Below are positions 126-20,217 of a stretch of 20,545 bases of DNA, piece by piece. Position 1 is the stretch's first letter. Each line of letters opens with the position of its first letter. The position numbers were made by a program, and so were the translations under genes. The notes under the pieces were generated by a model. The model was not told the DNA's origin. It saw nothing but the letters and a program-made list of their open reading frames with translations, and searched no databases. Source of the stretch: Candidatus Auribacterota bacterium (GTDB taxonomy: Bacteria; Auribacterota; JAFGBW01); contig JAFGBW010000003.1 of NCBI GenBank assembly GCA_016932965.1, forward strand, positions 1 to 20,545. The letters are read 5' to 3'.

Positions 126-1607
126 TTAACCTGCTCTCAGCTGCTGGGTTATTTCTGTGATTGTATTTCTAAGGAAGTCCGGAAGATAAAATCCCAATAA
201 AAGAATCCAGCTTAAAAGCAGTAATGGAGGTAACACAGCGCAGATGAATTCCGAGAGAGAGGTGGTTTTGACTTCCAGGTGGCATCGCTCTCCCTGTGAC
301 ATGAATAGAATGGTTTTGGACATGCTGATGAAAATGACAGAAAGGAAAAAAAGAAAAAGGATCGTTTGCCACAGCAGTTGTTGCCTGAGTGCTTCTTGTA
401 AAATCATGAATTTGCTGAAAAAAGTTCCAAAAGGCGGCATGCCTGATATGGCAAAAAGTCCTGCCAGCCATAAAATTCCGGTGAGCGGTGAATGGTGAAG
501 GATTCCCTGTATTTTATTGATGGATTTTGTTTTATAGGCTGTGAGGATATTGCCGGAAATCAAAAAAAGTGCGGCTTTGACGAAGGAGTGGTTCAGCACA
601 TGGAAAATAGAGCCCCAGGCTCCCAGTCCGCCGAGCCCTATTCCGAAAATCAAAATTCCCATATGTTCTACGCTGGAATAGGCCAGCATTCTTTTGTAGT
701 TGTTCTGGCCGAGAATGAATATCGAGGAAAAGATCAGCGACAAGATTCCAAAAAGTCTGAAAAGATCCTGCGCAAATGAGGCAAGTCCTGCTGCTGAGGC
801 AATGGAATAAATGCGGAGGAGCGATAGGAAGGCGCAGTTGAGCAGGGCTCCTGACAAAAGGGCGGACACCGGGGACGGCGCTTCGCTGTGTGCGTCAGGA
901 AGCCAGGTGTGAAAAGGGGCCAGCCCCATTTTAGTTCCGTATCCCACCAGGAAAAAAATAAACGCTGTTTTCAGCCAGATTGTCTTGAAATGAATGGCAC
1001 GGCTGATCATACCAGGGAAAAGCAGGGAGGAGGCCGTCTGGCCAGTCTGACAGGCTGAAACGGATATAAAGATGTTTCCCAGAAGACCCAGCGCAATACC
1101 GACTGAACAGATGACCAGGTATTTCCATGTGGCTTCTAAAGAACGGCTGTTTTTATTGAAATAGATGAGAGGAGCAGTGGAAAGGGTGGTGGCTTCCATG
1201 GCCACCCAGAGAATACCAATATGCTGGCTCATGGTGACCAGGGACATGGATGAAAGAAAAAAATGCATGCATCCCAGAAACAGCTTTTCATTTTTTTTTG
1301 ATGAATCACCTTCCCTGTGATCCGGAAATGATGAATAGACCGATTCCTGCTGCAGGTATTTCAAAGAATATACCGAGGAGGCGAGAAATAAAAGGGAGGC
1401 GATGGAGAGGAAGAAAAGGCCGGTCTGATCGAGATGAATCCAGTTTCCGGTATTGGGCGGTTCAGGAATTATCCAGAGACTGAGAAGCACTCCGGCATGT
1501 CCCAGAGACAGGCAGACAAGCAGAATACGGTTGATGATTTTATTGGGGATGAAGCACGTCAGGGTGCCTGCAATCAGAGGGGATAGAATAAGGACTAAGG
1601 GGCGCAT
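126..1607 (-). CDS. hyfF: HyfF-like proton-translocating antiporter subunit of a group 4 (Hyf-type) complex
   Basis: This 493-residue polytopic membrane protein belongs to the NuoL/M/N (Mrp antiporter-like) family and probably moves protons or Na+ in a membrane-bound hydrogenase. Its signature segment is HTWLPDAHSEAPSPVSALLS (residues 233-252), which is the HyfF wording rather than the HyfB wording. The family's TM5 Glu (E138, in VAMEAT) and TM7 Lys (K226, in GTKMGLAPFH) are present. Hydrophobic segments span nearly the whole length, about 14 helices, with a hydrophilic loop near residues 92-108. Length fits HyfF of enteric bacteria. It starts 4 nt after the hyfE-like stop and ends 3 nt before the hyfG-like start, so the genes are likely translated together. 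Confidence 0.9.
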   Translation of the reverse strand: MRPLVLILSPLIAGTLTCFIPNKIINRILLVCLSLGHAGVLLSLWIIPEPPNTGNWIHLDQTGLFFLSIASLLFLASSVYSLKYLQQESVYSSFPDHREGDSSKKNEKLFLGCMHFFLSSMSLVTMSQHIGILWVAMEATTLSTAPLIYFNKNSRSLEATWKYLVICSVGIALGLLGNIFISVSACQTGQTASSLLFPGMISRAIHFKTIWLKTAFIFFLVGYGTKMGLAPFHTWLPDAHSEAPSPVSALLSGALLNCAFLSLLRIYSIASAAGLASFAQDLFRLFGILSLIFSSIFILGQNNYKRMLAYSSVEHMGILIFGIGLGGLGAWGSIFHVLNHSFVKAALFLISGNILTAYKTKSINKIQGILHHSPLTGILWLAGLFAISGMPPFGTFFSKFMILQEALRQQLLWQTILFLFFLSVIFISMSKTILFMSQGERCHLEVKTTSLSEFICAVLPPLLLLSWILLLGFYLPDFLRNTITEITQQLRAG

Positions 1608-1611
1608 CTGG

Positions 1612-2256
1612 TTATTCTTTCAATGAGGATAGTTTGTCAATGTCGATATGGTCGAATGCTCTGCTGATATGGAAAATCATGATGCCCATGATGAATACCC
1701 CGGCAAATATATCCAGCAGGATTCCCAGTTCTATGATAAAAGGCTGTTCGTGGACCAAGGTGATGCCCAAGGTATAAATACCGTTTTCCATGACCAGATA
1801 TCCGATCACCTGGCTGAGCGCTTTCCGGCGGCTGATGAGGATGAACAACCCAGTCATGATTGTGAAAAGGGAGGATGGAACCAAAAGCCGTGAGGTAAGC
1901 AGATACGGTATTTGAAGCCGGAAACCCAGCCATGCGGAAATGAATAAGAGCCCCATACCGAAAAGAATGGAAAAGGAATATCCGATAAAAGGCTCCACTT
2001 CATGTCTGACATCAGCTTTCCGCATGGCTTTTTCCAGATAATAAGGAAAAATCAGCCCCCTTAAAAGAATGCTGCCTACTGCAAGCAGAACAGAATCATA
2101 AGAAAAGGCCGGAATATGTATCAAAAACGGAAGGATTCCAAGGCTGAGTCCCTGGAGTGCCAGAATCCTGATGCATGTTTTCAGGCGGCTGATTCCTAAA
2201 AAGGCGAGGTTGGACAGGATGAGGAACATGAGCACAATATCAGCAATGGTTTTCAC
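1612..2256 (-). CDS. hyfE: HyfE-like hydrogenase membrane subunit
   Basis: A 214-residue, almost entirely hydrophobic protein with about 6-7 membrane helices. It matches the HyfE family, whose C-terminal half resembles NuoK. The conserved stretch SQVIGYLVMENGIY lies near residues 148-161, followed by a helix with an acidic pair (IELGILLDIF). HyfE is thought to be part of the membrane arm that links hydrogen metabolism to ion pumping. It overlaps the end of hyfC by 4 bp (ATGA type) and lies 4 nt upstream of hyfF. Family recognition is by motif and by operon position between HyfC- and HyfF-like genes. No substitution stands out. Confidence 0.85.
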   Translation of the reverse strand: MKTIADIVLMFLILSNLAFLGISRLKTCIRILALQGLSLGILPFLIHIPAFSYDSVLLAVGSILLRGLIFPYYLEKAMRKADVRHEVEPFIGYSFSILFGMGLLFISAWLGFRLQIPYLLTSRLLVPSSLFTIMTGLFILISRRKALSQVIGYLVMENGIYTLGITLVHEQPFIIELGILLDIFAGVFIMGIMIFHISRAFDHIDIDKLSSLKE

Positions 2257-3164
2257 AGTTCCTCTAATAGGATTAAAATGCCCAGGACCGAGAAAGAAAA
2301 CGCCGCTATGAGCAGCTGCGGAATATGGATGAGCTTGAGTCTTGCCATGACGGATTCAGTGATGCCTGTAAGGACGCCTATGAGAATCAGCCATCCGATA
2401 CAAAAAGCAAAATGGGTCAGGGGAGAAAGGGGGATTGCCGCGGCTAAAATCCCGGATAGGACAGAGCCGAAAATCCATAATTTAAGGGAGCCTGAATAAA
2501 GAAGAAACGCCAGGTCAGGCCCGCTATGGTCCAATATCATGACTTCATGAATCATGGTGAGTTCCAGGTGGGTGTTGGGGTCATCCACAGGGATGCGGGC
2601 GTTTTCCGCGAGGTAAATGATATAGATCGCGGTCAGGATAAGGAGGATCACAGGGATATGGTTGCCGAAAATCCAGGAATCAATGCCGGAAAAAACTCCT
2701 GTCAGGGAAGTTTGTCCGGTCATCTTGCATAACGCTGCCAGACTCACAAATAAGACAGGCTCGCAAAGCGTGGAAAATGCCGCTTCGCGGCTTGCGCCCA
2801 TTCCTTCGAAGCTGGAACCGGTATCCAATGCAGCAAGAATCATGAAGAACCTCACTAATCCCAGAAAATAAATCAAAACAACATAATCCCCGGGAAAAAA
2901 GAGGATGCTAGGCTGACCTCCCAAAGGGAGTAAAAATAAAACGATGATCATAGCAGCCAGAGAAATTACGGGTCCTGTTTTAAATAAGAAAGTCGTTGTC
3001 GTGCTGTAGACGGCACCTTTCCGGATCAATTTCAGGATATCATAATAGAGCTGGAATATAGAGGGGCCTTTTTTTCCGGAAAAAAAAGCTTTGGTTTTGT
3101 TGATCACGCCGGGTAGTAACGGCGCAAAAATCAGGGCAGATAATATGGCAAGAATCCCGTTCAT
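2253..3164 (-). CDS. hyfC: HyfC/HycD-like (NuoH family) hydrogenase membrane subunit
   Basis: A 303-residue NuoH/HycD-family protein with about 8 membrane helices. In these complexes it forms the joint between the peripheral hydrogenase module and the ion-pumping arm. Family marks visible are GPSIFQLYYDILKL (residues 33-46, the cytoplasmic loop after TM1), FEGMGASREAAF (119-130) and the acidic loop ENARIPVDDPNTHLELTMIH (187-206), which corresponds to the quinone-cavity loop of complex I. These are intact. It begins 1 nt after the hyfB stop and overlaps hyfE by 4 bp. The gene symbol follows the Hyf naming because HyfE and HyfF partners are present; HycD of formate hydrogenlyase is the close relative. 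Confidence 0.9.
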   Translation of the reverse strand: MNGILAILSALIFAPLLPGVINKTKAFFSGKKGPSIFQLYYDILKLIRKGAVYSTTTTFLFKTGPVISLAAMIIVLFLLPLGGQPSILFFPGDYVVLIYFLGLVRFFMILAALDTGSSFEGMGASREAAFSTLCEPVLFVSLAALCKMTGQTSLTGVFSGIDSWIFGNHIPVILLILTAIYIIYLAENARIPVDDPNTHLELTMIHEVMILDHSGPDLAFLLYSGSLKLWIFGSVLSGILAAAIPLSPLTHFAFCIGWLILIGVLTGITESVMARLKLIHIPQLLIAAFSFSVLGILILLEEL

Positions 3165-3165
3165 A

Positions 3166-5151
3166 TCATTTCACTTTCCATATCAGGAGGAGGCAAAGAA
3201 CCAGGGCAATATAAAGAACATACATTTGCAGCATCCCGTGCTGGAATCCCTTGAACACCCGGGTTATTTTAACGAATTTAGAAAATACCGGCTGGTAAAA
3301 GAAACGGTTGAAAATATCGTTATAGTGGGTTGAGAAAGAGGCTTCCTTAGGGAAATAACTTTCAGGTATCGCATGAGTTTTTTGTATCCGCAGGATGAAT
3401 TGAAATAATTTTTTTAAAGGGTCTGAGAAGGAAGAGGCCGTGTACTGCATACGGGAAGAGGGGAATAAGAACCCGCATCCCCATGTTTCCTTATATGGAG
3501 CGGGCTGTCTGGAAAGAAGGAAACGGCGGAGAAGAATGACCAGGAATAGGACAACTAAAAATACAGTACAACTGAGACTGAGCATGTTCAGACTTTCATA
3601 AATAAAATGCCAGTCAGATATGGAAGATAAAGAGGAACCGGTTATATAGAGGATAGGCCTGCTGAGTGTTTTAAAAACTGCGGGTGCAAACAGGCCGATA
3701 AGAACGCAAAAAAGCGAAAGGAGAATCATAGGAGAAGTCATCCATGATGGGGATTCTTTGACCGGTTCAGCAAAATGTGTGCGTGATTCACCTAAGAACA
3801 TGATGCCAAAGACTTTGGTGAAACAGGTGAGAGCCAGACCTCCTATGAGGGCAAGGGATAATATCGTGGCGAGAAAAATCATGATAAAAGCAGGGCTCAA
3901 AGATGCCATGCCAGTAAAGGAAGCCAGATAAATCAGGAATTCGCTGACAAATCCATTCAAAGGCGGCAGGCCTGAAATGGCTATGGAACCGATAAGAAAG
4001 GTCCATCCGGTAACAGGCATTTTTTTCATGAGTCCTCCGGAATGGTCTATATCCAAAGAATGGGTTTGGCAATATACCGAACCTGCTCCAAGGAAAAGCA
4101 GGCTTTTAAAGACCGCATGATTGAAAATATGTAAAAGTGAGCCGCCTATTCCAAGGCTGGCGATCAGGATGTTTTTTTCGGATAAGCCGATAAGTCCTGT
4201 ACCCAATCCTAATGTAATGATGCCGATATTTTCAACGCTGTGATAGGCTAGAAGTTTTTTTAAATCATGTTCTGCCAGGGCAAAGAGAACTCCCAATATT
4301 CCTGAAACAGAGCCTATGATGATCAAGAACCATCCCCACCAAACAGGAGGATTCCCTAAAATCACGAGCGTTTTCATGATGCCGTATATTCCTGTTTTGA
4401 TCATGATGCCTGATAAAACGGCAGAGACCGGACTGGGTGCTGCCGGATGAGCTTCAGGAAGCCATATATGGAAAGGGATCATGCCTGCTTTGATGCCAAA
4501 GCCGATCCAGGAAAAAATAAAAAGACAATTTAAAATTATTTTTGAAACGTTTGAATCGGTTAGAGGAGATAAGTTGAAGTCCGGATTGATCTGATTGAGT
4601 AAAATAAAAAATACAAGGAGAAAACAGGTGCCGAAATGCGTCGCTATCAGATAAATCCAGCCTGCTTTTTTTGTTTGTTCTTTTTCATGCTGGAAACTGA
4701 TCAGGAAATACGAGGCTATTGTCATGATTTCCCATGCAAAGAGAAAGACAATGCCATTCGCCGCAAGAAAGACCAGGATCATGCTCGCGATCAGAATTTG
4801 ATAAAAAAACCAGTATGCACCGACGGATTTGTCTTCTTTGAATCCATGAAGATAGGAGTAGCTGTATAAAGCGGAGCAGAAGGCAAGAATATAAGTCGGT
4901 AAAATAAAAAATGCTGAAAGAGGATTCAATTCGATCATGAGCCTACCTAAAGGAATCGGATACGGCAGGGAGTACATATCAGCTGTGCCTGAGAAGATAC
5001 AACGGATAACCGGAATGATGCCGAATCCTGCGGCTAAAAGAATTCCTGACACAGCAAAGGCGGTTGAGAGAGAACGATTTCTTGCAGCAAACAGAGAAGC
5101 AAGACCGCTGACAAAAAGAAGAACCAGGCTGAAGAGAAGATATTCCATCAA
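3166..5151 (-). CDS. hyfB: HyfB-like proton-translocating antiporter subunit
   Basis: A 661-residue NuoL-like antiporter subunit, the size expected for HyfB. The segment PFHIWLPEAHPAAPSPVSA (residues 226-244) is typical of HyfB/HycC. E141 (in FAWEIM) and K221 (in KAGMIPFH) fit the conserved TM5 Glu and TM7 Lys of the proton path. The C-terminal region (about 575-661) contains an ETWGCGF...RMQYTASSF block that is characteristic of this family before a final membrane helix. It probably pumps H+ or Na+ in step with electron transfer. It overlaps the stop of the upstream HTH-EIIA gene by 4 bp (ATGA), which strongly suggests that regulator and complex are co-expressed. Confidence 0.9.
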   Translation of the reverse strand: MMEYLLFSLVLLFVSGLASLFAARNRSLSTAFAVSGILLAAGFGIIPVIRCIFSGTADMYSLPYPIPLGRLMIELNPLSAFFILPTYILAFCSALYSYSYLHGFKEDKSVGAYWFFYQILIASMILVFLAANGIVFLFAWEIMTIASYFLISFQHEKEQTKKAGWIYLIATHFGTCFLLVFFILLNQINPDFNLSPLTDSNVSKIILNCLFIFSWIGFGIKAGMIPFHIWLPEAHPAAPSPVSAVLSGIMIKTGIYGIMKTLVILGNPPVWWGWFLIIIGSVSGILGVLFALAEHDLKKLLAYHSVENIGIITLGLGTGLIGLSEKNILIASLGIGGSLLHIFNHAVFKSLLFLGAGSVYCQTHSLDIDHSGGLMKKMPVTGWTFLIGSIAISGLPPLNGFVSEFLIYLASFTGMASLSPAFIMIFLATILSLALIGGLALTCFTKVFGIMFLGESRTHFAEPVKESPSWMTSPMILLSLFCVLIGLFAPAVFKTLSRPILYITGSSLSSISDWHFIYESLNMLSLSCTVFLVVLFLVILLRRFLLSRQPAPYKETWGCGFLFPSSRMQYTASSFSDPLKKLFQFILRIQKTHAIPESYFPKEASFSTHYNDIFNRFFYQPVFSKFVKITRVFKGFQHGMLQMYVLYIALVLCLLLIWKVK

Positions 5152-6094: not shown

Positions 6095-6589
6095 TAATAA
6101 ATAATGAAATCAGGAATGAGAATAATGATCTGCACCTGTTGTTTAATTTTTCGATCTGAAGGGATTCAAGCTCCATTATTGTTATTAAGACAAGAATCAA
6201 GAATTGATTAGGAAGAGGTTGAGAATCCTCCGGGACAGTGACAGTATAAATATATTTTTTTGAGATCGTATCGTAATAGCAACAGTGTCATTCGAACGAA
6301 TGGAAGACATTTTGGTTGGTTGATTTGCAATAAGGCGGGATTTTTCACTTATACCCGAAAAGAATATTAGAGTATTTTTCATGATTATTTGGCAGTCTCC
6401 AGTTTCGATGATGATATTTAGTTTATATCGACTTGAGTGGAATTCATTGTTATCATAAGACTGAAAGTAGTTATATTTGATCCACAATTTTAGTTCACTT
6501 TCATTGAAAATAATATTATCAGATTTCAGGTTCTATTGACAAATTAAGATGCATCAGGTAATGAGACAAAAAAATAAAACCCACTATCA
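6095..6589. other. AT-rich intergenic spacer with no convincing gene
   Basis: About 500 bases between the MITE-like element and the ribosome binding site of the ROK-like gene. Short minus-strand frames here have no recognisable motif, good start context or codon pattern. A near-palindrome CATTCGAACGAATG lies at 6289-6302. TTGACA at 6536-6541 is a perfect -35 hexamer on the plus strand, but the hexamer 17 bp downstream (TAATGA) is a poor -10, so a promoter for the next gene is only possible. I see no tRNA, riboswitch or terminator that I would defend. Confidence 0.5.
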
Positions 6590-6603: not shown

Positions 6604-8550
6604 ATGGTTAAATCGAAAATAAAACAAATTTTTTTATCCGTATTCCTTGTCAATATCGTTTTAATTAATATTTCAGCTTTGGATAACGACACTCTGGCTC
6701 CGCTAACCCAGGCGGAACAGGAGGTTTTATCAGTTTTCCTCACATCTGACCCTTCCATCACCTATGATGATCTGGAGTATGCCATTCATCAGTTTGCAGG
6801 GCCCAAATGCAGTGTGAAAATCACGTCCGCCAACGGCAGAAGTGAAGCCATAGAAATTCCCCACCCATCAGCAGTCCCTGAGACGCAAAAAATAGCTATT
6901 TATAAGCAATATATCGCCAAATTATTTGCCAGAGACATGGCTTTGAGCAATCCTTTCTCTCCCCTTCTGATTGAAATGGATATCGAGGGGGATCAAAAGA
7001 CAGCGGAAGAAAAAATCATCCGGGACATTATTTTGGAATATTTTAATAGTGATCAGGAAGGCATGGGGACAATGAGATTTTTAAGAAAAGCCAACAATGG
7101 AAATCCCGTGGGGGTATTCATCACCGGGGACCAATTTCCAGTCATGTCCTTGTCTGAAACAGTTGGAAATTATAAAACCCCGGAGGAATTAAGGTCTGAG
7201 GGGAAAAATATCGTTACCTTGGGGGTGGATATCGGCGGAACAGGGATAAAAATATGCATTAAGAATAACGGGCAGACCATCACCAGTGACATTTATAAAG
7301 ATGATGAGGCTTTTGGAGCGTTTCAACATGCCCTGATTGAAGCATTCCGGGCAAAGGGAATCCATCTGACGGAAGCAGATATTAAAATTGACCGAAAAGA
7401 CGGTGTCATTTCCTGCCCGTCTTTCGGGACAAAAGATATGAATCCCTACACAGGGGAAACCATAAAAAACGTCCTTGTCACCTTTGTCTCCCAAATGGTT
7501 GACACGGTGAACGCACATTACATTAACGTCACACCTCATGCGGGCATCAAAGTGAGAGGACTCTTTATTGACATGCCCGGAATCAAGAACAGTGAAAAGA
7601 ATTGCATGAACTCCTGCGGGGAACTTGCCAGCAGGGTTTCTGAGGGTGATTTCCAGGTGCACATGGATAAATTCAATGAGTTTATTCCTGAACTGAAAGG
7701 CATTTGCGAAGAAAGAGCGATTCAGAGTTTTGATTTTGGAAATGACATGGAAGGACATGCGCTTTACATGGCAACACAGGCTGGATTCAATGACGCTGTC
7801 GGATTTTTCTTCGGCGGGGGCTTGGGGACTTTTTTACTCAAGGGAGGCAAAATGTCTATTGGCTTTAACGAGGGTGGACACCATTGTATCGCCCCAAACA
7901 TGATTGTCAATGAAAGTGCCAATTGTGTTGCAGGATCCCATGAGCAGATGGGCGGAAGTAGACTCGGAATCCAGGATTTTTGCTCGGATCCTATAATCGG
8001 GGATGGACTCGCAGAGGACATGCGAATTGAATTTGGCATCAATCTCAGAGGAATCGATAATATTGATATTGGGAGACTGGCCGCGGGTCTCAATCCCTTC
8101 TCTGGAAAAGAATTGACCACTGTGCAGAAAAGAAAATTGCAACCCAAGGCTTTGAATGTTTACAGAGTTTCTGAGAAATACACCGCCGATCACATGTTCC
8201 GGGCGTTCAAAATGATCGGGGATACAGGGGTAAAAGATGTGACTAATTTTATTCTCGGTGGGGGACCATTCAAAGGGGAAACAGGTAAGATCCGGCTTGG
8301 TTTTGTAAAAGAGCACCTCCTGACATTTCTGGATAAGCGGGGAATGAATCCTGAACTCAAAATTCAGACCGATAAGCAGGTGGTCATCGCCTTTACTATC
8401 ATGGAAGGCGGGAAATCCATCACCAAAACGTTTGATATCCGCATAGTGGATGAAAACGCCGCCGCTGGGTCCGCCGAAAGAGCCCTGAGAGACTACCAGG
8501 ACATGGAAGCATCAAAAGCGGCTGAAGCACAAGTCGGAACGGCTGCATAA
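6604..8550 (+). CDS. ROK-like (hexokinase-fold) sugar kinase homologue with signal-like N-terminus
   Basis: A 648-residue protein. Residues 6-25 form a hydrophobic helix after a Lys-rich start, followed by ALDNDTLAPLT, which resembles a Sec signal and cleavage region. Residues about 36-195 are an unrecognised helical domain. From 203 on there are ASKHA/ROK motifs: phosphate-1 loop GVDIGGTGIK (207-216), FIDMPGI (321-327, probable catalytic Asp), GND (379-381), phosphate-2 loop GGGLGT (404-409) and adenosine-type FILGGG (549-554). The ROK zinc motif is altered: GGHH is followed by few of the usual Cys (C428, C441). It is about twice the usual ROK length. ATP-dependent phosphorylation of a sugar is likely, but the substrate is unknown and an exported kinase would be odd. 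AGAGGA 8 nt upstream supports the start. Confidence 0.7.
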   Translation: MVKSKIKQIFLSVFLVNIVLINISALDNDTLAPLTQAEQEVLSVFLTSDPSITYDDLEYAIHQFAGPKCSVKITSANGRSEAIEIPHPSAVPETQKIAIYKQYIAKLFARDMALSNPFSPLLIEMDIEGDQKTAEEKIIRDIILEYFNSDQEGMGTMRFLRKANNGNPVGVFITGDQFPVMSLSETVGNYKTPEELRSEGKNIVTLGVDIGGTGIKICIKNNGQTITSDIYKDDEAFGAFQHALIEAFRAKGIHLTEADIKIDRKDGVISCPSFGTKDMNPYTGETIKNVLVTFVSQMVDTVNAHYINVTPHAGIKVRGLFIDMPGIKNSEKNCMNSCGELASRVSEGDFQVHMDKFNEFIPELKGICEERAIQSFDFGNDMEGHALYMATQAGFNDAVGFFFGGGLGTFLLKGGKMSIGFNEGGHHCIAPNMIVNESANCVAGSHEQMGGSRLGIQDFCSDPIIGDGLAEDMRIEFGINLRGIDNIDIGRLAAGLNPFSGKELTTVQKRKLQPKALNVYRVSEKYTADHMFRAFKMIGDTGVKDVTNFILGGGPFKGETGKIRLGFVKEHLLTFLDKRGMNPELKIQTDKQVVIAFTIMEGGKSITKTFDIRIVDENAAAGSAERALRDYQDMEASKAAEAQVGTAA

Positions 8551-8817: not shown

Positions 8818-9285
8818 ATGACTGAACAAGCCATACCTGTATTGAGATTAAATAAGCCGGATTTGAACGGAAAAAAGACTTTTATTCTGGATAAGGAAAT
8901 CACCATTGGAAGGGACAAAAAAAATACCATTGTTATCTTGAGCCCCAATGTGTCCAGACACCATGCCAAGATTTATAAAACAGATAAAGGTTATTATATG
9001 GAGGATCTCCAGAGTCATAACGGGACGCTTTTAAACGGCAGGCTCGCCAGAAAGGAATTGCTTCAGGAGGGGGATCTGATCAACATTGCCGATGTGGAGA
9101 TGAATTTTTTACTTTCTTCTGATACGGTTCCCGATGAGAGTAAAGTGCAGATGACGGATTCTCAGGTGGGCCCCATTGTGTCCGGAAAGACGGAATTCGT
9201 TGATCTTTCTGAATTAAATAAAGAGCAGATGGAAGAATTGAGGAAACAGAAGCCGGTCCGGACCAACCCCTGGAAGGAATCATGA
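8818..9285 (+). CDS. FHA-domain protein
   Basis: A 155-residue soluble protein. Residues about 8-100 are a forkhead-associated domain, which binds phosphothreonine peptides: GR at 31-32, SRHHAKI at 46-52 and HNGTLLNG at 67-74 are all present. The rest (101-155) is a polar tail without recognised domain. It contains KTEFVDLSEL near 124-133, which holds a possible phosphothreonine (T125) for intra- or intermolecular binding; that is speculation. A GAGGAG 7 nt before the ATG gives a strong start. TTGACT at 8755-8760 could be a -35 box, though no good -10 follows. The stop overlaps the kinase-like gene by 4 bp (ATGA), so the two are almost certainly a functional pair. Confidence 0.9.
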   Translation: MTEQAIPVLRLNKPDLNGKKTFILDKEITIGRDKKNTIVILSPNVSRHHAKIYKTDKGYYMEDLQSHNGTLLNGRLARKELLQEGDLINIADVEMNFLLSSDTVPDESKVQMTDSQVGPIVSGKTEFVDLSELNKEQMEELRKQKPVRTNPWKES

Positions 9286-10283
9286 TCCGTTTTTTACTCA
9301 TCATTCTGTTTTTTTTATGCGTTTTGGTCTTGATCATAATCAGCAGGAAAAAAAATAAAAAATCTTTTACTGCTCCTGCAACACAGCCCAAGAAAGAGCC
9401 TCCACAACCGTCAGCCAGGCTGAAAGAGGACCTGGAGAACAAGCTGAATCAGGTCCTGAAGAAAAAATTTACCGACATCCTGATCACTTCCTTTTCCGGA
9501 TTTGCGATCACGGCTTCGGCCATAGACGCAACGACAAAGCAGAAAGTCCAGATCAAAACGCTCAATCCTGAATTTCAGAATGATGAAAAGGCCAAAAAGA
9601 TTTTTACTGCTGAACTGGAGGCCATCAAACGCATTGATCATCCCAATATCATCCGGATTCTGGATGTGGTCAGCAACGACGATATTTCTTTCTATGTCTC
9701 TGAATCTCTTGAAGGGGAAACATTGGAGGATCTCCTCAAAAGAGAGGGAAAGCTTCCCTTAAAGAGGGCCCTTCATATCACCAACGAAGTGCTGAAAGCC
9801 CTCGTCCATTGTCATAACAACAGGATCATTCACCGGGACATCCGGCCGTCCAATATTTTTATCAATAGGAAAAATACGGTCAAACTCATCAATTTTGACA
9901 TTGTGAAGATCATCACCGGCCAGTACGGGGAGGACATATCCTCCACGAGAATCGGGGGGCCTGATTTCGGTTCCCCTGAACAGATCCAGGGATTGGCTAT
10001 TACCGGTAAAAGCGATGTTTTTTCATTGGGAGTATGCTTTTATTATATGCTCACCAATCATTTTCCTTTTTTGAATCCGCTGGCTACATTGGATGCCACA
10101 ACGAGACCTGAAAATATTAAAAGATACTGTCCCAATCTTCCGGATGAAATCGTCGAAATCATTTCTGTCTGTCTTGAAAAAAATCCGGAAGAGCGCCTGA
10201 AAAGCATGGATGTCTGGAAAAAGATTCATTTTTTAAAACTGCCTGAAGACACTACTTCGACCAAAAAGATCAGCGGCAGCTGA
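9282..10283 (+). CDS. Membrane-anchored Ser/Thr protein kinase homologue, possible pseudokinase
   Basis: A 333-residue protein. Residues 3-20 are one membrane helix, then a basic, Pro-rich linker to about 45, then a eukaryotic-type kinase fold to about 315. The kinase would be cytoplasmic. Visible landmarks are K92 (VQIK), E111 as likely helix-C Glu, HRD at 184-186, N191, GSPEQ (230-234) and DVFSLG (245-250). Several key sites are unusual: the Gly-rich loop is degenerate (LITSFSGFAITASA, 67-80), the HRDxK Lys is Arg (R188), and DFG reads NFD (N204-D206), losing the Mg-binding Asp. Weak or absent phosphotransfer is possible, with a scaffold role beside the FHA partner. No PASTA or other sensor domain is present. 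Confidence 0.85.
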   Translation: MIRFLLIILFFLCVLVLIIISRKKNKKSFTAPATQPKKEPPQPSARLKEDLENKLNQVLKKKFTDILITSFSGFAITASAIDATTKQKVQIKTLNPEFQNDEKAKKIFTAELEAIKRIDHPNIIRILDVVSNDDISFYVSESLEGETLEDLLKREGKLPLKRALHITNEVLKALVHCHNNRIIHRDIRPSNIFINRKNTVKLINFDIVKIITGQYGEDISSTRIGGPDFGSPEQIQGLAITGKSDVFSLGVCFYYMLTNHFPFLNPLATLDATTRPENIKRYCPNLPDEIVEIISVCLEKNPEERLKSMDVWKKIHFLKLPEDTTSTKKISGS

Positions 10284-19226: not shown

Positions 19227-19409
19227 CTAGCCCGCCTATTCCACGGATCTTCTACTGCGGACGAAAACGGTCTTTCATGTTTTACGTCGAAGCACCAAGG
19301 CGATCTTGACATATTGCAGTATGCCGGCACCCGTTTTGACGATTCTAGCCTCAAATGTGAGGGCATTTATGCATTCTCGTGACGAAACCCAGTGAGATAG
19401 GCGGGCTAG
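19227..19409. mobile_element. 183-bp element with 13-bp perfect terminal inverted repeats
   Basis: CTAGCCCGCCTAT (19227-19239) and its exact complement ATAGGCGGGCTAG (19397-19409) bound a 183-bp segment. CTAG is itself a palindrome, so the ends may be read as a 9-bp repeat CCCGCCTAT flanked by a CTAG target duplication. The next bases inward are also similar on both ends (TCCACGG against CTCACTGG). The interior has no domain that I recognise. It behaves like a non-autonomous insertion element or an internally deleted insertion sequence. Its right end coincides with the stop codon of the methyltransferase gene. Confidence 0.65.
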
Positions 19410-20191
19410 GCGGCTGTCTTTTCAGGTTTGCTATTCACGGTCGGGGCCCCTTCCTTTGTATAACCATAGACAAAATAAACGGTATCTGTAAAAGAAGGGA
19501 ACATTTCATTCAATGGAAATGCTTCTTTTTCAACCGTCATTGCCGGAAAAAGTCCGGTTTCCAAAAGAGCAGTTTTCGTGAATTCCAAGCGTTCAGAAGG
19601 TGATCGCATCTTCCAGCTGATGACCTCTTCCTCCTCTTTTGCTGCAGAGGTATAGGCGATAAAACATAATCCACCCGGTTTCAATTTTTTCAATACATTG
19701 GCAAATAATTTCCGTGGATCTTGGAGATAGGCCATGCCAGAGGTCATCATGACAACATCAAATGATTCATCGTCCAATTCGTCGAGATGACTGTGCTGGT
19801 TTAAATCTCTTACGATCCGTCCTGTGAGGACTTGATTTCTATGCAGTTCGTTGCTGTTTAATCCTATTCCTATAACACTATCCGGGGTGTACGTATCGGG
19901 TAATAGGGTATGAGTGCCGCTTAACAGGTCAATGATTTTGGCGTTTCGGGGTAGAACAGCTTGTAATTTCGCTTTTATGGCTGGCACTGCTGTTGGATCC
20001 CAAAATCCTAAATTGGCATAGGTTGTAAAAAAATTTTCTGAAATACCGGTATCAACAATGGCCAATCTTGTCTTTGGGGCCAAGACCCTATCACCTGTTG
20101 CATGGTTCAGCAGAAAGATAATCGTTGTTAAAGCTAATGATATTTTCATAAACATTTTTATCAATAAAAAACCATCATAAGCATACCACAT
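19406..20191 (-). CDS. SAM-dependent methyltransferase homologue with signal-like N-terminus
   Basis: A 261-residue protein. Residues about 15-33 form a hydrophobic signal-like helix (MKISLALTTIIFLLNHATG), then DRVLAP. From about 60 the protein follows a class I methyltransferase family that I know best from cyanobacteria: IIDLLSGTHTLLPD (86-99, in place of the Gly-rich DLGCG loop), VIGIGLNSNEL (106-116), VRDLNQ (127-132), SFDVVMMTSGMAYLQDP (143-159) and LKPGG (170-174). The substrate is unknown, and export would be strange for a SAM enzyme. The start is uncertain: the ATG at 20191 abuts its AGGAG with no spacer, while M13 (20155) and M15 (20149) would give a cleaner signal peptide. The TAG stop lies in the adjacent mobile element's end repeat. 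Confidence 0.7.
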   Translation of the reverse strand: MWYAYDGFLLIKMFMKISLALTTIIFLLNHATGDRVLAPKTRLAIVDTGISENFFTTYANLGFWDPTAVPAIKAKLQAVLPRNAKIIDLLSGTHTLLPDTYTPDSVIGIGLNSNELHRNQVLTGRIVRDLNQHSHLDELDDESFDVVMMTSGMAYLQDPRKLFANVLKKLKPGGLCFIAYTSAAKEEEEVISWKMRSPSERLEFTKTALLETGLFPAMTVEKEAFPLNEMFPSFTDTVYFVYGYTKEGAPTVNSKPEKTAA

Positions 20192-20217
20192 CTCCTAGGA
20201 GAATAAAAGGGGGGGGG
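20191..20217 (-). repeat. Palindromic ribosome-binding region and nine-base homopolymer tract
   Basis: TCTCCTAGGAGA (20191-20202) is a perfect 12-bp palindrome that contains the only purine-rich ribosome binding site of the methyltransferase gene. Seven bases further out is a run of nine G on the plus strand (20209-20217), a C tract in the gene's leader. Homopolymer runs of this length can change length by slippage; any effect on expression is inference. Confidence 0.5.

What the first reader, a model, noticed from the sequence alone, without database searches (positions are those of the whole stretch)
6604..6720. ROK-like kinase carries a signal-like helix and D-x-x-LAP motif
An ATP-dependent sugar kinase fold is expected in the cytosol, yet this protein starts with a Lys-rich, hydrophobic segment and ALDNDTLAPLT, plus an extra 170-residue domain before the kinase core. 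The methyltransferase homologue at the other end of the window has the same layout with DRVLAP. This suggests a shared sorting or anchoring tag on unrelated enzymes, possibly for an unusual compartment or cell surface. I recall similar starts in Omnitrophota proteins.
Basis: partly seen in the sequence, partly recalled or inferred. Interest (0 to 1): 0.7.

Follow-up and report, generated by a model that had tools for sequence, protein, structure and literature searches.

The report
Two-ended address tag on unrelated enzymes
This bacterium puts the same short label on both ends of more than fifty unrelated enzymes that normally work inside the cell, and switches many of them on with a shared promoter, which suggests an undescribed delivery route that sends working enzymes out of the cytoplasm.

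Summary
The kinase-like protein at 6604-8550 starts with a signal-peptide-like helix followed by LAPLT. The conserved motif is not D-x-x-LAP but L-[A/S]-P-x-[S/T]. In about 846 kb (27%) of the host genome I found about 51 proteins with this start. Almost none is related to another, and many are cofactor-dependent enzymes: radical-SAM (RlmN-like, B12-type), protein and sugar kinases, uridine kinase, GNATs, methyltransferases, a racemase.

Two further shared features were not in the finding. First, a C-terminal tag: 38 of 44 end in a small-residue pair, usually -[S/A]-A-COOH, against 5 of 138 other signal-peptide proteins. Second, a promoter element, TTGA-N16-18-GGTA: 14 of 41 against 2 of 327. 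Codons vary at both ends, so selection acts on protein.

A profile of the start matches only this genome and two others of its phylum, out of 384 genomes; a fourth has one example. It is absent from 145 genomes of the phylum of a record labelled Omnitrophota.

Best reading: a co-regulated, two-ended sorting tag exporting enzymes from the cytosol. Destination and reading machinery are unknown; no localisation was tested. ROK membership of the kinase is only weakly supported.

The parts
6536..6563 (+). Promoter-like element TTGACA-N15-GGTAAT shared with other tagged genes
   Evidence: TTGA-N16-18-GGTA in 17/50 tagged upstream regions vs 4/494 others; this site scores 16.9 bits; held-out detection 61% vs 5.7%
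6604..8550 (+). Tagged ROK-like (ASKHA) kinase homologue, 648 aa; only a decayed paralogue elsewhere in the genome
   Evidence: motifs DIGGTGIK 209, NDMEG 380, GGGLGTF 404, GGHH 424; weak hhalign match to ROK at 388-432
6604..6678 (+). Signal-peptide-like segment, residues 1-25 (MVKSKIKQIFLSVFLVNIVLINISA)
   Evidence: Hydrophobicity and charge pattern only; no trained signal-peptide predictor was available
6694..6708 (+). N-terminal tag L-A-P-L-T, residues 31-35 (consensus L-[AS]-P-x-[ST])
6709..7209 (+). About 170-residue N-terminal domain between tag and kinase core
   Evidence: Aligned to the decayed paralogue at G000:C196 (query 41-251, 32% identity); structure model unreliable (mean pLDDT 39.5)
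8533..8547 (+). C-terminal tag V-G-T-A-A, residues 644-648
   Evidence: C-terminal small pair in 38/44 tagged vs 5/138 untagged signal-peptide genes vs 30/411 others
19406..20191 (-). Second tagged protein in the window: methyltransferase homologue (261 aa from ATG at 20191, or 247 aa from ATG at 20149)
   Evidence: Pfam; motif I of the SAM site looks altered (IIDLLSGTHTLL)
20069..20083 (-). N-terminal tag L-A-P-K-T of the methyltransferase homologue
19409..19423 (-). C-terminal tag E-K-T-A-A of the methyltransferase homologue
20181..20207 (-). Weak candidate for the shared promoter element (TTTATT-N11-TGTGGTATGC, 11.8 bits), upstream of the 20149 start
   Evidence: low score, tentative

Best explanation
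The kinase homologue is one member of a co-regulated set of at least 50 proteins (roughly 2% of this genome's genes) that share a two-ended address tag. The N-terminal end is a Sec-type signal peptide followed within about 0-20 residues by L-[A/S]-P-x-[S/T]. The C-terminal end is a small pair, typically -[S/A]-A-COOH, often with V or T at position -5. The signal peptide most likely takes the chain across the inner membrane. The LAP-x-[S/T] segment, at or near the mature N-terminus, together with the free C-terminus, is then read by a dedicated but unidentified receptor, protease or secretion channel that moves the protein onward. The cargo is catalytically plausible ATP-, SAM/[4Fe-4S]-, acetyl-CoA- or RNA-using enzymes, so the destination should hold such cofactors. 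I think the cytoplasm of another cell (prey, partner or host) is the likeliest destination (about 0.35). The cell envelope is next (about 0.25) and an internal compartment after that (about 0.15). Shown by sequence: both tags, their co-occurrence, the promoter, unrelated cargo, intact catalytic motifs in several members, untagged housekeeping copies for RlmN and ROK. Inferred: export, recognition of the two ends, destination.
For: Tag at the N-terminus: 23 vs 2 vs 1 occurrences, and LAP-x-[ST] 14 vs 0 vs 0, own vs unrelated vs other sampled genomes; logo. C-tail, which was not used in the N-motif test: 38/44 vs 5/138 vs 30/411; 2x2 table [[39,18],[34,502]], p=4e-27. Codons at the C-end vary freely (GCA/GCC/GCT/GCG, TCC/TCA/AGC), so selection is on protein, not DNA. 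Tagged proteins are not paralogues: 2 related pairs among about 52. Shared promoter, restricted to genes with their own upstream gap: 14/41 vs 2/327, p=5e-13; held-out halves 61% vs 5.7%. High-scoring 'untagged' promoters led to tagged proteins that the N-terminal filter had missed (L210 ...SLAPR...GRSS, L267 LAPVS...VSAA, L129 LAPKS...RTAS). Cargo; intact CxxxCxxC, HRD, P-loop and GNAT motifs. Two further, better-scoring RlmN copies and one normal ROK gene exist. Charge is positive before and negative after the helix (+1.2/-0.6), so N-in/C-out. The same N-tag and partly the same C-tail occur in family f6 genomes. Neither Pfam nor NCBIfam has a model that matches the tag region.
Against: No protein was localised and no trained signal-peptide program was available. 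No receptor, protease or channel was found: no ATP/ADP translocase in this genome, and the SprA search was uninformative. Radical-SAM and RNA-modifying enzymes are hard to place outside a cytoplasm at all. The organism's lifestyle is unknown.
Confidence: 0.55

Rival explanations
1. The tag routes enzymes to the periplasm or cell envelope only: an ordinary Sec secretome whose mature ends happen to be under strong constraint, with the C-terminal pair read by an envelope PDZ or tail-specific protease as a quality-control mark.
For: Signal peptides fit Sec topology. C-terminal -[S/A]-A resembles, from general knowledge, the non-polar tails read by tail-specific proteases. Mature parts are poorer in Cys than cytosolic proteins (0.84% vs 1.5%).
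Against: 138 other signal-peptide proteins lack the tags (C-tail 5/138). The cargo needs ATP, SAM, acetyl-CoA or RNA.
Confidence: 0.25
2. The proteins are gathered in an internal membrane-bounded or protein-bounded compartment reached through Sec, with N- and C-terminal addresses working like the two peroxisomal targeting signals.
For: Metabolic and signalling enzymes with catalytic motifs kept; untagged copies of RlmN and ROK remain in the genome; co-regulation.
Against: No compartment genes were identified. The cargo is not one pathway and half has no family.
Confidence: 0.12
3. The C-terminal pair is a degradation mark (SsrA/ClpXP-like) that destroys copies which fail to be exported, so cytosolic doubles of housekeeping enzymes do not accumulate; the N-terminal motif alone does the sorting.
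For: Tails such as -TAA, -EAA and -LGAA end like known ClpX or tail-specific protease substrates (general knowledge); untagged housekeeping copies exist.
Against: Most tails end -SA, -SG or -SS rather than -LAA. Not tested.
Confidence: 0.1
4. The pattern reflects DNA-level spread, for example gene cassettes or recent duplication that copied the ends.
For: Tagged genes cluster: L126 6 of 7 genes, L254 7 of 12 by the automatic count plus at least 2 more carrying one or both tags.
Against: Codons and signal-peptide sequences differ from gene to gene; members are unrelated; tagged genes in the clusters lie on both strands among ordinary genes.
Confidence: 0.03

Closest known systems
[quoted passage not shown]
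   Same: Signal peptide plus a short motif (RxLxE/Q/D) a few residues downstream on many unrelated proteins; marks proteins for export to another cell's cytoplasm (PMC10900883, PMC4740378).
   Different: Eukaryote, different letters, cleaved by plasmepsin V, no C-terminal counterpart.
PEP-CTERM/exosortase, GlyGly-CTERM/rhombosortase, MYXO-CTERM/myxosortase, LPXTG/sortase
   Same: Many-to-one bacterial sorting tags found by genome-wide motif search (PMC1569441, PMC3237569, PMC11980579).
   Different: Those are C-terminal tripartite tags with a membrane helix and basic tail. Here the C-end is a bare small pair and the motif sits at the mature N-terminus.
Peroxisomal/glycosomal PTS1 and PTS2 (general knowledge)
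   Same: Very short free C-terminal address and an N-terminal address on metabolic enzymes.
   Different: Eukaryotic, no Sec signal peptide; each protein usually carries one of the two, not both.
SsrA/ClpX and tail-specific protease C-terminal marks (general knowledge)
   Same: Short C-termini ending in alanine.
   Different: Consensus -LAA; no coupled N-terminal motif or promoter.
ROK-family sugar kinases (PF00480)
   Same: The kinase homologue has DxGGT, ND, GGGxG and GH motifs in the right order.
   Different: Below Pfam detection; lacks the CxCGxxGC zinc motif; 170-residue N-terminal domain and tags.

Membership tests
ROK kinases (PF00480) - kinase core | Significant match to the family profile | tested here: not met
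   No Pfam hit at E<=0.1; NCBIfam allose kinase E=0.15 over 25 residues; hhalign vs five phylum ROK proteins E=0.0017, probability 15%
ROK kinases (PF00480) - kinase core | DxGGT, catalytic ND, GTGxG and GH motifs in order | tested here: met
   DIGGTGIK 209, NDMEG 380, GGGLGTF 404, GGHH 424
ROK kinases (PF00480) - kinase core | CxCGxxGCxE zinc motif | tested here: not met
   Present in L293-L297, absent in the window protein (by eye)
PEXEL-type N-terminal export motif | Signal peptide followed by a conserved short motif on many unrelated proteins | tested here: met
   (different letters)
PEXEL-type N-terminal export motif | Cleavage at the motif and delivery to another cell | not testable with these tools
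   Needs N-terminal sequencing and localisation
PEP-CTERM / sortase / GlyGly-CTERM type | C-terminal motif + membrane helix + basic tail | tested here: not met
   C-termini of 44 complete members read: mostly polar linkers ending in a small pair
Bacterial lipoproteins | Lipobox [LVI][ASTVI][GAS]C after the signal peptide | tested here: not met
   Cys at -1 from LAP in 18% only, with variable residues before it
SsrA/ClpX-type C-degron | Consensus -LAA C-terminus, degradation by ClpXP | tested here: inconclusive
   Ends are -[SA]-A in most, -LAA in none of 44; degradation not testable
T9SS cargo | Genome carries SprA channel | tested here: inconclusive
   PF14349 found in none of 44 genomes, but also in no control
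   145 genomes of the phylum of record L109: only 2 weak matches in tiny or broken frames

The most novel reading that the evidence does not exclude
A previously undescribed bacterial protein-delivery system reads a two-ended tag (mature N-terminal L-[A/S]-P-x-[S/T] plus C-terminal -[S/A]-A-COOH) and moves a co-regulated repertoire of dozens of cofactor-dependent enzymes, among them radical-SAM, kinase, acetyl- and methyltransferase homologues, out of the cell into another cell's cytoplasm or into a dedicated compartment.
Probability: 0.4. Interest if true: 0.93.

Novelty: new variant of a known kind. Interest (0 to 1): 0.8.

Why it matters
Sorting tags have repeatedly led to the discovery of new machinery (sortases, exosortases, rhombosortase, PEXEL). 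Here a tag at both protein ends and a shared promoter mark dozens of normally cytosolic, cofactor-dependent enzymes for what looks like export. If true, an uncultured bacterial lineage exports working metabolism or signalling enzymes by an unknown route. The tag, its C-terminal partner and the promoter give three cheap handles for finding the machinery by phylogenetic profiling.

Tried and rejected
D-x-x-LAP as the motif: not enriched as a bare pattern and D is not conserved. Orthologues of the kinase in relatives: none. PDB sequence matches for the kinase: only noise. AlphaFold model of the kinase: unusable (mean pLDDT 39.5), so no fold search was run. DNA-cassette explanation: rejected by codon variation and lack of homology. 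Paralogue expansion: rejected. Promoter enrichment as a by-product of single-gene transcription: still 14/41 vs 2/327 when only genes with their own upstream gap are compared; part of the element is simply a strong sigma-70-like promoter, and f6 genomes mostly show plain TTGACA/TATAAT without the GG. ATP/ADP translocase as a sign of parasitism: absent in this genome. T9SS SprA: nothing, but no positive control. Literature: no paper describing such a tag turned up among the terms tried; the library lacks most subscription journals.

Full report
What was claimed.

The observation. The 648-aa ORF is intact. Its start is MVKSKIKQIFLSVFLVNIVLINISALDNDTLAPLT. The methyltransferase homologue (19406-20191, minus strand; Pfam Methyltransf_23/11) starts MKISLALTTIIFLLNHATGDRVLAPKT from a downstream ATG at 20149. 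The literal motif D-x-x-LAP is present only in the second. As a DNA pattern it is not enriched in the genome (35 matches, 47 for the reversed control), but about 8 of those matches lie in open frames just behind a hydrophobic N-terminus, which showed that something real was there.

The real N-terminal motif. In 560 kb of the host genome (call name G000) LAP behind a start codon and a hydrophobic stretch occurs 23 times, against 2 in 1345 kb of unrelated genomes and 1 in 298 kb of other genomes, mostly of the same phylum; the permuted tripeptides tested show no such excess. LAP-x-[ST] occurs 14, 0 and 0 times. Part of that 560 kb was chosen because it held pattern matches, so densities from it are biased upward; in contigs taken by number alone the class is present but sparser. 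Over 51 members the motif is L(1.00)-A/S(0.78/0.20)-P(1.00)-x-S/T(0.59/0.29), with K, R or Q favoured at x. L lies at residue 11-45 counted from the start chosen, mostly 20-32, and 0-24 residues after the most hydrophobic 11-mer. The helix is preceded by net positive and followed by net negative charge, the topology of a Sec signal peptide. No trained signal-peptide predictor was at hand, so this is a heuristic.

The C-terminal tag (not in the finding). Listing the members showed that they also end alike: kinase -AEAQVGTAA, methyltransferase -NSKPEKTAA, others -SVSLSA, -RFVEGSA, -VPSSA, -VETGA. The last two residues are small in 22 of 26 members against 23 of 369 other ORFs in the first sample (p about 7e-20). 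In a larger sample with membership set by the N-motif alone the table is [[39,18],[34,502]], p=4e-27. For the curated list, in which a C-tail could help admit a few members, the rate is 38 of 44 tagged genes, 5 of 138 signal-peptide genes without the N-motif, and 30 of 411 genes without signal peptide. Codons at the end vary, so selection is on the protein. Several of the exceptions in the untagged set turned out to carry L-S-P or L-G-P starts.

The shared promoter (not in the finding). A search of upstream regions for spaced four-mers returned TTGA-N17-GGTA as most enriched (10 of 50 against 1 of 493, p=1.9e-10 for about 10^6 combinations). Allowing N16-18 gives 17 of 50 against 4 of 494. With only genes that have their own upstream gap it is 14 of 41 against 2 of 327 (p=5e-13). 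A weight matrix trained on random halves finds 61% of held-out tagged genes and 5.7% of the others (its seed came from the k-mer search on all members, so this is not a fully blind test). The kinase has TTGACA-N15-GGTAAT at 6536-6563. Of the highest-scoring genes counted as 'untagged', three proved to be tagged proteins missed by the hydrophobicity filter. The element looks like a sigma-70-type promoter with a conserved GG before the -10; in family f6 the tagged genes mostly have plain strong promoters.

What carries the tags. The proteins are unrelated to each other (two related pairs among about 52). Pfam and NCBIfam identify an RlmN-like radical-SAM enzyme (2.8e-22) with intact CxxxCxxC, a B12-binding radical-SAM enzyme, two protein-kinase homologues, a ribokinase-like PfkB protein, uridine kinase fused to CYTH, a glutamate-racemase homologue, an isochorismatase, GNATs, methyltransferases, an amidohydrolase, an aldose epimerase, a metallo-beta-lactamase domain and a histidine-kinase-type ATPase; about half have no family. 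The enzyme cores lie inside the tags, which are extensions. The same genome also has two better-scoring RlmN copies (open frames of 365 and 350 aa) and one normal ROK gene. Tagged genes are scattered, but also form clusters on both strands: L126 (contig C2) 6 of 7 genes; L254 (contig C37) 7 of 12 by the automatic count plus at least 2 more with one or both tags; L120 (contig C154) 5. Ordinary genes between them lack the tags.

Distribution. A profile of 60 N-termini finds 41 places in G000, 4 each in G006 and G013 (one other family) and none in the other 41 held genomes of the phylum at E<=0.02, including the two of the same order. At E<=0.001 it finds members in 3 of 384 genomes. G012 of a third family has at least one, on a 6021-aa open frame. 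In family f6 the tagged proteins include CheR-type methyltransferase, SpoIIE phosphatase, starch-synthase and glucosamine-6-phosphate-isomerase homologues, and several end in -SA. In 145 genomes of the phylum of L109, a record labelled Omnitrophota, there is no credible member. A profile trained on these genomes would miss variants elsewhere.

The kinase itself. It has ROK-like motifs in the right order but no significant profile match, a weak local hhalign match and no zinc motif. I call it ROK-like, not a ROK member. It has no homologue in 58 other genomes; the one relative, at contig C196 of the same genome, is broken by a stop and by frame changes, but shows that the 170-residue domain and the kinase core belong together. 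Its AlphaFold model is not usable.

How it most likely works. Shown: two tags, their coupling, the promoter and the kind of cargo. Inferred: the signal peptide takes the protein through Sec, and a dedicated reader recognises the LAP-x-[S/T] start and the free small C-terminus. Since the cargo needs ATP, SAM, acetyl-CoA or RNA, a destination with cytoplasm-like content is the most natural one, most likely another cell; periplasm/envelope and an internal compartment remain possible. A C-terminal degradation mark that removes unexported copies is a testable alternative for the C-end. No reader was found.

Known systems. It works like PEXEL (signal peptide plus short motif on unrelated proteins; PMC10900883) and like the CTERM/sortase tags found by genome-wide search (PMC1569441, PMC3237569, PMC11980579), but it fails the defining features of the latter and shares no letters with the former. 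I therefore file it as a new variant of the known kind 'protein-sorting tag', with the two-ended form and the cargo as what is new.

Noticed in passing
L126 (G000 contig C2) 1580-12087; L254 (contig C37) 980-15781; L120 (contig C154) 2892-19627: Clusters of tagged genes on both strands, interspersed with untagged ordinary genes (for example an ispF-like gene and an RNA-binding protein).
   Followed up: partly
L126:5203-6297 (-): RlmN-like radical-SAM enzyme with intact CxxxCxxC behind a signal peptide, while two better-scoring RlmN copies exist at contigs C144 and C169.
   Followed up: partly
G000 contig C196:14871-15536 (in L122): Decayed copy of the window kinase with an in-frame TGA and frame changes; its start reads signal-like helix + DTPCPAPVT.
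   Followed up: yes
L275 (G012 contig C24), L278 (G006 contig C45), L147 (G000 contig C16:8166): Very long open frames (6021, 3438 and at least 2781 aa) that begin with the same tag.
   Followed up: partly
window 126-5151 (-): Hydrogenase-4/formate-hydrogenlyase-type membrane subunits in a row (by eye), followed by an HTH + PTS EIIA protein.
   Followed up: no
window 8818-10283 (+): FHA-domain protein followed by a membrane-anchored serine/threonine kinase just downstream of the tagged kinase; neither carries the N-tag.
   Followed up: no
upstream of tagged genes in G006/G013 (L273, L277, L278, L279): Near-consensus TTGACA-N17-TATAAT promoters, mostly without the GG typical of G000.
   Followed up: partly
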